From a virus: a stretch of DNA of 30,517 nt. The stretch spans positions 1 to 30,517 of the IMG/VR virus record IMGVR_UViG_3300020469_000167; one strand, given 5' to 3'. The first letter of the stretch is position 1, and each line of letters begins with the position of its first letter. This document shows, one piece after another, positions 7,774 through 25,843 of this stretch. Position numbers and translations under genes: made by a program. Under the pieces are notes generated by a model. The model was not told the DNA's origin, made no database searches, and saw only the letters and a program-made list of their open reading frames with translations.

Positions 7774-7820
7774 CATTCCCTTGAACCCTTACAGAGTTAT
7801 TGTACACACATTTACATGAC

Positions 7821-7849
7821 TTGTCAAGTATCTCGTTTTGAGGTATAAT
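7821..7849 (+). promoter_or_regulatory. Host-type sigma-70 promoter for gp55
   Basis: TTGTCA (7821-7826), 17-base spacer, TATAAT (7844-7849). The predicted start site is near 7856, giving a short leader with GAGG (7863-7866) before ATG 7875. It is a near-consensus promoter for host polymerase, as expected for a gene that must be made before late transcription can begin. Confidence 0.85.
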
Positions 7850-7874
7850 AAAAGTAACACAAGAGGTAATATAG

Positions 7875-24221: not shown

Positions 24222-24920
24222 GTGAAAAAGTTCATTGCTACATGTATTGGTCTTGCATTGAGCGTACCTGTACTAGCAAATCCATTGCCTAAACCCATCG
24301 AAGGTAAGATTACTAAAGGATGGCACAGTGCTGATGCAATGGGATGTATGATTCTTCGGGAATGTACTGAAGATGTGGAAGAAGTATTCTCTCTCCTTGA
24401 TGTTTCTAATAACTACAACAATACTGCTAGTTTCAATACTGTTGCTGACGAGTTCAATGAGATGTTGGTGGCACTTAACCAAGTGGGAGTAAGGGTTTAT
24501 CTGGCAGATGAAAAATATTTTCCTGTAGGAAATCGTGGAGTGTATCACACAGTTAGTAATGCTTTCTTCTTGAACAAAGCATTCATGGGTCGTCCTAGTA
24601 CACTCATGAGTGTCATGCGACATGAAGGATGGCACGCTGCACAAGATTGTATGGCAGGCACTATCAATAATAGTATGATTGCTATCATTCTGGATGAGGA
24701 AAAAGTACCTCAGATCTGGCAAAACATTGCCACTAAAACTTATGCTGCAACTCCCAGTGCAATTCCTTGGGAGAAAGAAGCATTTTGGGCAGGGAAGACT
24801 GAGAACATGACTATGAACGCATTGAAAGCATGTGCTAATGGTAACATGTGGGAAGTCTACACACCCACCCCTATGACTGGGGAATGGTTAGAGAAAAATG
24901 GATTTATCAAAGGGGGTTGA
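24222..24920 (+). CDS. Exported protein with HExxH metallopeptidase motif
   Basis: 232 residues from GTG 24222. Residues 1-19 form a classical Sec signal peptide (KKFIATCIGLALSVPVLA) with likely cleavage after Ala19 before NPLPKP. The mature part carries RHEGWHAAQD, with HEGWH at 134-138. Two His plus Glu in that motif are the zinc-binding and catalytic residues of many metallopeptidases. A third ligand is not obvious; Glu or His further on are candidates. Several Cys could form disulfides, which suits the periplasm. A role in lysis or envelope remodelling is possible but unproven. It ends at a strong promoter. Confidence 0.8.
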   Translation: MKKFIATCIGLALSVPVLANPLPKPIEGKITKGWHSADAMGCMILRECTEDVEEVFSLLDVSNNYNNTASFNTVADEFNEMLVALNQVGVRVYLADEKYFPVGNRGVYHTVSNAFFLNKAFMGRPSTLMSVMRHEGWHAAQDCMAGTINNSMIAIILDEEKVPQIWQNIATKTYAATPSAIPWEKEAFWAGKTENMTMNALKACANGNMWEVYTPTPMTGEWLEKNGFIKGG

Positions 24921-24945
24921 CACTCCACACAGACCGTACTATAAT
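24917..24945 (+). promoter_or_regulatory. Consensus sigma-70 promoter leading into the structured RNA region
   Basis: TTGACA (24917-24922), 17-base spacer, TATAAT (24940-24945): both boxes and the spacing match the consensus. It overlaps the stop of the preceding gene. The start site should be near 24951-24953, exactly where the first hairpin begins. It is the strongest-looking promoter in the window. Confidence 0.92.
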
Positions 24946-24950
24946 AAGTT

Positions 24951-25184
24951 TGTTGGACGCAACATTGGGAGTGACTGAATAAACTTACTGGCATACTGCT
25001 GGTTAAGGTGATGAGACACAGGTGGTGCTGCTGCGAAAGCAGAATCGACTTACCAGTCGGGTCTCAGGCAAGAATGTATTTACTCTGTAGTAATGCCCAT
25101 TCTTTGTTGGTACACAGGAACCCAACCTCCCCTCTTTCTTTCAAGACCTAAGATGCAACTCAAGAGAGTCGGGCAGATGGTCTT
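24951..25184 (+). ncRNA. Structured RNA region of unknown family
   Basis: About 235 bases with no convincing ORF. Stems seen: TGTTG/CAACA (24951-24964); a three-way junction closed by TGAGAC (25012-25017) and GTCTCA (25061-25066), holding CTGC-GAAA-GCAG (25031-25042) and CGACT/AGTCG (25046-25059); AAGAATG/CATTCTT (25070-25104) with inner TTACT/AGTAA; GTTGG/CCAAC (25106-25126); and AAGACC/GGTCTT (25143-25184) with inner ACTC-AAGA-GAGT. It follows a consensus promoter and precedes a tRNA, so it may be an independent RNA, a leader, or a tRNA precursor. The cyanophage manA and wcaG RNA motifs are candidates I cannot test by eye. Confidence 0.6.
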
Positions 25185-25188
25185 TCAT

Positions 25189-25259
25189 GCGGGTGTCGTA
25201 TAAAAGTATTACGACAGGTTTCCAACTTGTAAACGGTGGTGCAATACCACCCATCCGCT
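25189..25259 (+). tRNA. tRNA-Gly(UCC) with altered D/T-loop contact bases
   Basis: A full cloverleaf: acceptor GCGGGTG/CATCCGC with one G-U pair, U8, D-stem GTAT/TTAC, anticodon stem ACAGG/CTTGT with loop TTTCCAA (anticodon UCC, reads GGA), 4-base variable loop, T-stem GGTGG/CCACC, discriminator T; CCA is not encoded. It resembles T4 and E. coli tRNA-Gly(UCC) in the 5' half (TCGTATAA). The D-loop AAAAGTA has A at position 18, and the T-loop TGCAATA has G at position 55, where nearly all tRNAs have G18 and U55. It may be functional with a compensating contact, or decaying. It lies 22 bases upstream of the next gene. Confidence 0.85.
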
Positions 25260-25281
25260 TTACAAACTATATACTGGTGCA

Positions 25282-25617
25282 ATGACCGTCAAACTAGTTC
25301 TACTAAAATCTAACGAAGAAGTCATCGCAGATGTGAAAGAACTTGTAGATGAGGATCAAAAACCTATCTTCATCGTTCTTGAAAACGCTTACTGTTGTAA
25401 GTTGGTTGAATCACCTGTGTTACTTACAGAAGGAAAAGAGGAAGAAGAAACACAGTACAGTGTACAATACTATCCTTGGATGCCTTTATCTGATGAGAAA
25501 AAGATATCTATTGATCCCAGCTGGGTCGTTGCGATAGTAGAACCAAAACCTATGGTAAAACAATCTTACGAGACTAAAATTTATGGAACAGGAAGTAAAG
25601 ATACTAATCCTAGTTAA
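25282..25617 (+). CDS. Sm-like small protein (second paralogue)
   Basis: 111 residues. It starts with TVKLVLLKSNEEVIADVKEL (first strand pair), continues FIVLENAYCCKLV, then YYPWMPLSDEKKISIDPSWV with VVAIVEPKP, and ends in a short polar tail. The order matches the gene at 7357 and the one that follows: strand pair with a polar turn, Pro-Trp, then V-x-x-V-E. No Shine-Dalgarno is seen before the ATG, and the tRNA 3' end is only 22 bases away, so expression may depend on RNA processing. Its 3' end overlaps the next gene by 35 bases. Confidence 0.75.
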   Translation: MTVKLVLLKSNEEVIADVKELVDEDQKPIFIVLENAYCCKLVESPVLLTEGKEEEETQYSVQYYPWMPLSDEKKISIDPSWVVAIVEPKPMVKQSYETKIYGTGSKDTNPS

Positions 25618-25843
25618 TGGCGCCGTTATTATCTCAAAGATAGAGGAAGTCGGTGCTGTTGATATTGGAGATCCAAACTGCAAACTTGTATCACCTTATG
25701 AACTTGAGGGTGATGATATGTCGCCTTGGTTAAAGAAGGTAACAGACGACGTTGAAATTATGATATGTTCTGATAAAATAGTAACATTGGTGGAACCCCA
25801 CCGAGAACTCATTGATTCTTATTTGAAACTGGCAACTGCATGA
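25583..25843 (+). CDS. Sm-like small protein (third paralogue)
   Basis: 86 residues, the shortest of the trio. EVKILILVNGAVIISKIEEV gives the first strand pair, CKLVSPYEL the middle, MSPWLKKVTDDVEIMICSDK the Pro-Trp and following strand, and IVTLVEPHRELIDSYLKL the Sm2-like end plus a helix. It starts 35 bases inside the preceding gene and shares ATGA with gp43, so it is translated together with DNA polymerase. An RNA-binding role for the group is inference. Confidence 0.75.
   Translation: MEQEVKILILVNGAVIISKIEEVGAVDIGDPNCKLVSPYELEGDDMSPWLKKVTDDVEIMICSDKIVTLVEPHRELIDSYLKLATA

What the first reader, a model, noticed from the sequence alone, without database searches (positions are those of the whole stretch)
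24917..25281. Consensus promoter followed by a densely structured RNA of unknown family
The best host-type promoter of the window drives about 235 bases without a gene but with at least six stem groups, including a three-way junction and a GAAA-capped hairpin. AAGAATG/CATTCTT competes with GGCA/TGCC, so switching is conceivable. It could be a phage regulatory RNA, a riboswitch-like leader of the two Sm-like genes, or a remnant of an intron or tRNA array.
Basis: partly seen in the sequence, partly recalled or inferred. Interest (0 to 1): 0.85.

Follow-up and report, generated by a model that had tools for sequence, protein, structure and literature searches.

The report
Cyanophage manA RNA with extra hairpin
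The stretch is a known but functionally unsolved structured RNA of marine cyanophages (manA), here with its own strong promoter, a companion hairpin that the known model lacks and a worn transfer-RNA gene behind it; what it controls is still unproven.

Summary
Window 24951-25136 is manA RNA (Rfam RF01745, 186.7 bits, cut-off 55.2). On 117 distinct sequences 94.0% of 6035 helix cells are paired. The promoter is the only 12-of-12 sigma-70 match in the window, and a promoter of this kind lies at the same place before 113 of 118 manA core loci; the other five follow a tRNA. So the RNA starts at about manA nucleotide 1.

Two parts lie behind it. A 42-nt hairpin (25143-25184) with an invariant internal loop matches no Rfam family at E<=10. 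Of 136 occurrences held, 135 lie directly behind manA and one is cut off by its contig end. A tRNA-Gly(UCC)-like element (25189-25259) lacks normal D-loop and T-loop signals.

A U-tract follows the hairpin in 75 of 135 cases; 58 of the other 60 are followed by a gene 32-type start or this tRNA. Most likely manA is a promoter-born cis-acting leader governing whether transcription continues; a stand-alone RNA is the main rival. The proposed GGCA/UGCC switch has no covariation support. Function is untested.

The parts
24917..24945 (+). sigma-70 promoter TTGACA-17-TATAAT; the -35 box overlaps the stop codon (24918-24920) of the upstream gene
   Evidence: position conserved in 113 of 118 core-pattern loci, window included; -10 end to manA nucleotide 1 is 4-6 nt in 91 of 113
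24951..25136 (+). manA RNA (RF01745), whole model 1-192; predicted transcription start at 24951/24952
   Evidence: 186.7 bits, E 8.7e-51; pair counts over 117 distinct sequences
24967..25131 (+). long-range closing helix (the 'pseudoknot?' of the 2010 paper): GGGAG 24967-24971 with CUCCC 25127-25131
   Evidence: four pairs GC in 117 of 117; 24970-25128 is AU in 111, UA in 5, unpaired in 1
25143..25184 (+). manA-linked 3' hairpin module AAGACC-UAAGA-UGC-A-ACUC(AAGA)GAGU-CGG-GCA-GAU-GGUCUU
   Evidence: folds to -12.9 kcal/mol, z -2.28; 98.5% of 474 cells paired, 4 pairs with two-sided change; manA-linked in 135 of 136 occurrences, 1 uninformative; no Rfam match at E<=10
25189..25259 (+). tRNA-Gly(UCC)-like element, no GG in the D loop, UGCAAUA in place of the usual T loop
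   Evidence: RF00005 51.3 bits; ARAGORN finds nothing; S-SSM7 has an ARAGORN-accepted tRNA-Gly at the same place
25282..25617 (+). downstream gene (DUF6561/phrog_431; its S-SSM7 counterpart is T4-GC 176), first gene before gene 43
25583..25843 (+). second DUF6561/phrog_483 gene (S-SSM7 counterpart T4-GC 177), followed by gene 43 DNA polymerase at 25840

Best explanation
Shown by sequence comparison: the region is a manA RNA at the head of a transcription unit. A host-type sigma-70 promoter should start the transcript at about manA nucleotide 1; the manA fold is followed by a manA-linked hairpin and, here, a tRNA-Gly-like element, then two DUF6561 genes and gene 43. Inferred: manA works in cis as a nascent-RNA control element. 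The folded core (closed by GGGAG/CUCCC) and the hairpin module decide whether RNA polymerase stops at a U-tract just behind them or continues into the gene; the module is a conditional terminator in most settings. Where a gene 32-type gene or tRNA-Gly follows, as in this window, the U-tract is missing, so transcription would run on and the tRNA would be cut out. Whether the trigger is a ligand (riboswitch), a phage protein, or direct binding to the polymerase (put-like) is open.
For: Promoter fixed at the RNA 5' end. Upstream hairpin terminators: 47 of 115 against 13 of 493 control windows. A T-run lies within 8 nt of the manA 3' CUCCC in 61 of 113 copies against 4.8% of 3322 control positions; hairpin terminators follow in 28 of 115 against 19 of 290. 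Behind the module: 75 of 135 have a U-tract; of 60 without, 41 precede a gene 32-type start, 17 the tRNA-Gly-like element, 2 neither. Downstream neighbours are less diverse than upstream ones: 14 families in 36 representatives against 28 in 38; over all loci 25 in 79 against 36 in 82. Genes next downstream include gene 32 (P-HM2 annotation), talC, thyX and purS (Pfam) and the gene 43 cluster.
Against: One copy per genome in 13 of 13 named phage genomes and in Mosig, with no single target gene: 18 downstream families in 41 representatives. In 12 of 117 loci a tRNA separates manA from the gene, so tRNA processing would cut the leader off. 37 of 115 loci show no T-run, hairpin terminator, module or tRNA. 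T-runs within 35 nt before the next start codon are only modestly enriched: 36 of 99 (13 of 41 representatives) against 119 of 630 other ORFs. 29 of 117 have a late-promoter-like [CA]TAAATA behind manA, so the gene may be transcribed independently. A simple hairpin scan saw no clear downstream terminator excess (14 of 114 against 28 of 304). Among 90% representatives the T-run falls to 15 of 49. Control windows are mostly coding sequence, so intergenic composition may explain part of the enrichments.
Confidence: 0.42

Rival explanations
1. manA is a stand-alone, trans-acting noncoding RNA of the phage. It is made from its own consensus promoter, one gene per genome, and its 3' end is made by the module terminator, by the U-run, or by tRNA processing; the neighbouring genes do not matter.
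For: One copy in 13 of 13 named genomes, in about eight different gene neighbourhoods. Near-perfect promoters. The five core loci without a promoter lie behind a tRNA: four tRNA-Thr by ARAGORN (L013, L061, L113, L123), one tRNA-Gly-like read by eye (L062). A tRNA directly behind manA in 12 of 117. The module U-tract is missing in 17 cases where the tRNA could make the end.
Against: 41 module copies lead into a gene 32-type start without U-tract or tRNA. One 4.8-kb contig (L079) has two copies. Downstream neighbours are less diverse than upstream ones. P-TIM68, whose annotated next gene is antisense, has a + strand ORF of a shared family 15 nt behind manA.
Confidence: 0.3
2. manA is an ordinary metabolite riboswitch, as proposed in 2010, controlling mannose/fructose, nucleotide and photosynthesis genes.
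For: Complexity and covariation (48 significant pairs stated in the Rfam 14 paper, PMC7779021, passages read). Weinberg et al. 2010 rate it Y/Y/y for RNA, cis-regulation and switch (PMC2864571, passages read). L062 has manA RNA 18 nt before a mannose-6-phosphate isomerase domain; talC, thyX and purS are metabolic.
Against: Gene 32, the gene 43 cluster, a carbamoyltransferase and capsid-gene neighbourhoods share no obvious ligand. One copy per genome is unusual for a switch with so many possible targets.
Confidence: 0.2
3. The hairpin module is a plain intrinsic terminator that travels with manA by descent, and has no role of its own.
For: A U-tract follows in 75 of 135. The module is present in only 6 of 51 representatives, so the counts are inflated by relatedness; 136 occurrences have 119 distinct contexts.
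Against: The internal loop stays intact or with one change in 25 of 26 hits of a search that allowed three substitutions per half. The module persists without U-tract in 60 of 135. Terminators do not need a conserved internal loop (general knowledge).
Confidence: 0.25

Closest known systems
manA RNA, Rfam RF01745 (Weinberg et al. 2010, PMC2864571, passages read)
   Same: Full-length match, 186.7 bits, its helices and closing helix, cyanophage setting.
   Different: The model ends before the 3' hairpin module and the tRNA. The passages I read of six papers found mention neither a promoter at nucleotide 1 nor the module; other listed papers were not opened for this and supplements could not be read.
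HK022 put RNA (PMC9378689, abstract read)
   Same: Works like: a structured phage RNA in early transcripts that can suppress termination.
   Different: No sequence or structure relation tested; put RNA acts on the polymerase directly, which is untested for manA.
ROOL and GOLLD RNAs (PMC12286853, passages read)
   Same: Ornate phage RNAs, often near tRNAs.
   Different: Different and larger RNAs; only manA and tRNA reach a gathering score in the window.
Bacterial tRNA-Gly(UCC)
   Same: Cloverleaf, anticodon UCC, 51.3 bits to RF00005; an ARAGORN-accepted copy at the same place in S-SSM7.
   Different: No GG in the D loop, altered T loop, missed by ARAGORN.

Membership tests
manA RNA RF01745 | covariance score above the curated cut-off over the whole model | tested here: met
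   186.7 against 55.2 bits, model 1-192
manA RNA RF01745 | consensus helices with compensatory changes | tested here: met
   94.0% of 6035 cells paired, two-sided changes in most helices; the 5' hairpin is poorly kept in this alignment (16 to 58 unpaired of about 116 per pair) and no shuffle control was run
manA RNA RF01745 | position in a possible 5' UTR | tested here: inconclusive
   A same-strand gene follows at 25282, but a tRNA-Gly-like element lies between
riboswitch | ligand binding that changes gene expression | not testable with these tools
   needs probing and reporters
   GGCA/UGCC shows no two-sided standard change in 117 sequences; other pairings not tested
functional tRNA-Gly | cloverleaf with anticodon UCC | tested here: met
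   RF00005 51.3 bits over 1-71
functional tRNA-Gly | recognised by ARAGORN; GG in the D loop and standard T loop | tested here: not met
intrinsic terminator (module) | hairpin followed by a U-tract | tested here: not met
   In the window only UUUC follows the GGUC strand, then the tRNA; met in 75 of 135 relatives
put-type antiterminator RNA | RNA alone makes the polymerase resistant to terminators | not testable with these tools
   only the anatomy fits
ROOL/GOLLD | match to the Rfam models | tested here: not met
   only manA and tRNA reach gathering scores in the window

The most novel reading that the evidence does not exclude
manA is a two-domain phage RNA machine that acts on transcription: a mobile promoter-plus-RNA cassette whose core and invariant-loop hairpin form a regulated terminator (or a put-like antitermination signal), set down in front of replication and nucleotide genes and rewired by gaining or losing the U-tract or by fusing to a specialised, possibly non-decoding tRNA-Gly.
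Probability: 0.25. Interest if true: 0.75.

Novelty: new variant of a known kind. Interest (0 to 1): 0.5.

Why it matters
manA has stood as an unsolved riboswitch candidate since 2010. The evidence here changes the question: the RNA seems to be born at its own host-type promoter, a subset carries a 3' domain outside the Rfam model, and that domain's 3' side is a terminator, a tRNA or a gene 32-type gene. That gives direct, cheap tests (start and end mapping, terminator reporters in vitro) and tells where a test construct should begin and end.

Tried and rejected
Single-sequence energy as evidence for structure: rejected, z -0.56. Intron remnant: not supported; nothing but manA and tRNA reaches an Rfam cut-off in the window. 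Switch between AAGAATG/CATTCTT and GGCA/TGCC: rejected as a conserved feature. An argument that P-TIM68 has only an antisense gene behind manA was dropped, because a + strand ORF of a family shared with L085 lies 15 nt downstream. A link between GNRA loop type in the core and presence of the module: none seen. A simple terminator scan with loops of 3-8 nt showed no clear downstream excess (14 of 114 against 28 of 304) though an upstream one (45 of 125 against 12 of 304); the energy-based scan (28 of 115 against 19 of 290) and the T-run count (61 of 113) do show one, so the downstream result depends on the method. The genome collection gave 17 pattern hits, of which 3 hold manA (L142, L144, L150). 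Expression evidence: the passages seen of PMC5082946 (P-HM2 RNA-seq) and PMC2518516 name no manA transcript. PMC3037559 and PMC10976474 (passages) gave promoter background only.

112 of 120 (L005-L116) were scored by the covariance model and 108 passed the cut-off; L117-L124 were not scored. The 118 loci are core-pattern matches, not all model-scored: L061 is a cut copy below the cut-off, L123 unscored. The working set of 120 full-length copies has 103 viral contig copies, 13 named phage genomes, 3 genome-collection contigs and the window; 7 truncated copies were dropped. Counts contained five contigs fetched twice (through); one search recounts without them and its numbers are used (136 for 141, 42 for 43).

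Full report
What is there. Rfam at gathering thresholds gives two matches in the window: manA RNA (RF01745) at 24951-25136, 186.7 bits, and a tRNA at 25189-25259, 51.3 bits. The window is a 30517-base virus record. The best matching named phages for its first 25 kb are Synechococcus phages S-SSM6a and S-SSM7 (86.5-86.7% identity over 90-92%). In S-SSM7 the same place holds manA (123.6 bits) directly abutting an annotated tRNA-Gly, then two counterparts of the DUF6561 genes and gene 43. Aligned to it, the window carries about 50 extra bases between manA and the tRNA.

Structure. I placed the Rfam consensus structure on a MAFFT alignment of 117 distinct manA sequences: 5673 of 6035 cells (94.0%) form standard pairs, with many two-sided changes (for example 76 sequences at 25072-25102 and 45 at 25049-25056). 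Against this, the 5' hairpin is poorly kept in this alignment (16 to 58 unpaired per pair), as are 25031-25042 (25) and 25082-25091 (53), and no shuffle control was run on this count. The long-range GGGAG/CUCCC helix, marked 'pseudoknot?' in the 2010 paper (PMC2864571, passages read), is AU in 111, UA in 5 and unpaired in 1 at 24970-25128, and GC in all 117 at the other four pairs. The core search pattern fixed most of its 5' strand, so only that one pair could vary freely. The energy of the single sequence is unremarkable.

Promoter. The window's only 12/12 sigma-70 match lies just before manA. Among 118 core-pattern loci with enough upstream sequence (window included), 113 have a match of 9/12 or more, 97 of them 11 or 12; of 455 control windows 72 reach 9 and one reaches 11. 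The five exceptions follow a tRNA: four tRNA-Thr (ARAGORN) and L062, where a tRNA-Gly-like sequence is read by eye. On the model-aligned set, 113 of 115 copies have the promoter (49 of 51 representatives), and the -10 box ends 4-6 nt before manA nucleotide 1 in 91 of 113; controls reach 9/12 in 106 of 955. A hairpin terminator lies within 70 nt upstream in 47 of 115 against 13 of 493 control windows, and in many of the printed sequences the -35 box lies inside it. I saw no such terminator before manA in the window.

The 3' module. Behind manA, 26 of 117 loci carry CUAAGAUGCA-stem-GGGCAGANGGU, the window included. A pattern scan of viral contigs found 97 exact cases; 83 have the manA core 169-186 nt upstream, 13 of the other 14, cut by contig ends, show the manA 3' end, and one shows only 2 nt. 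On 40 distinct sequences the hairpin has 98.5% of 474 cells paired and 17 cells with two-sided change (shuffles 3.4); slid versions pair 36.5-42.7%; the number of further pair types does not exceed shuffles (7 against 7.0). The search pattern fixed the loop and part of the stems, so in the 117 loci chosen without it I searched with three substitutions allowed per half: 26 hits, 25 with at most one difference; the same search hits 21 of 2388 control windows. By pattern the module is absent from 21 of 21 named phage genomes searched. Its loop UAAGA/GAU, with GA on both strands, recalls a kink-turn or the 11-nt tetraloop receptor; that is from memory and untested.

What follows the module. Of 135 modules with at least 60 nt behind them, 75 have a U-tract (2 of these also before a gene 32-type start), 41 have no U-tract and a gene 32-type start, 17 have no U-tract and the tRNA-Gly-like element, and 2 have none of these. 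The gene 32 start was recognised by a short sequence pattern; the gene's name comes from the P-HM2 annotation. Counts are of sequences, not events.

The tRNA. The window's element has a cloverleaf with anticodon UCC but no GG in the D loop and UGCAAUA as T loop; ARAGORN rejects it and accepts S-SSM7's. The variant occurs 42 times in the loci held: 31 with the manA core upstream, 10 near contig ends (8 of them showing manA or module, 2 uninformative), 1 without manA (L268). tRNAs follow manA in 12 of 117 loci (4 Asn, 8 Gly: six by ARAGORN, two by Rfam or annotation, four by identity to this variant).

Where manA sits. In 13 of 13 named genomes chosen for a match there, it occurs once (12 isolates and the metagenome-assembled MbCM1; stricter filters that lose weak matches): behind the capsid gene, behind pstS, before purS, talC, gene 32, a carbamoyltransferase, the gene 43 cluster, or behind a NAD synthetase gene. 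The SAR11 phage Mosig has one weak copy (64.0 bits); seven other cyanophages have none. One short contig (L079) has two. Of 51 representatives under 90% identity, 41 have a usable first downstream gene, in 18 families. With up- and downstream treated alike there are 14 families in 36 downstream and 28 in 38 upstream; over all loci 25 in 79 and 36 in 82.

Reading. The promoter, upstream insulation, terminators behind the RNA and the narrower downstream neighbourhood point to a cis-acting transcription leader; T-runs just before the next start codon add little (36 of 99 against 119 of 630 other ORFs). The single copy, shifting neighbourhoods and tRNA punctuation point to a discrete RNA. I hold the first at 0.42 and the second at 0.30. 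Either way the item is a known family with a 3' domain outside its model. Of the papers listed, I read passages of six for manA (PMC2864571, PMC9964418, PMC7657543, PMC7779021, PMC12197685, PMC10665884); they treat manA as a candidate regulatory RNA without a tested function, and none of the passages mentions the module. The other listed papers were seen as listings only, and supplements could not be read.

Noticed in passing
window 25189-25259; L021, L051, L083, L155 and others: A conserved tRNA-Gly(UCC)-like variant without GG in the D loop and with an altered T loop, mostly behind manA; loss of these contacts recalls (from memory) tRNA-Gly species used outside the ribosome.
   Followed up: partly
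L003 2481-2657, L128 2571-2744, L132 2556-2730, L134 2505-2711, L001 2815-2946: Annotated hypothetical proteins (for example T4-GC 428, 524, 569, 570, 1355) overlap the manA RNA in named phages and may not be genes.
   Followed up: no
L037, L078, L089, L104 behind manA: Sequences resembling glutamine-type (glnA) motifs, with GTTCATC and GACGCAAGTAAG or close variants, follow manA; recognised from memory only.
   Followed up: no
upstream of manA in many viral contigs (output): The -35 box TTGACA lies in the loop or stem of a hairpin followed by T's: a fused terminator-promoter.
   Followed up: partly
0-80 nt behind manA, 29 of 117 loci: Late-promoter-like [CA]TAAATA is enriched (70 of 2296 control windows; 16 of 50 representatives), hinting that some downstream genes have their own late promoter; the CTAAATA form is recalled, not from a paper read here.
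   Followed up: partly
L297 (Pelagibacter phage Mosig), record 108164-108371: A weak manA copy (64.0 bits) in a SAR11 phage, followed by a rubrerythrin gene and then an ssDNA-binding protein gene; the same phage has a stretch like the window's tRNA (76.7%) at 7782-7854, annotated as protein.
   Followed up: partly
L144: manA in a 189-kb contig of a Prochlorococcus single-cell genome; the contig size suggests a phage genome in the cell, not checked.
   Followed up: no
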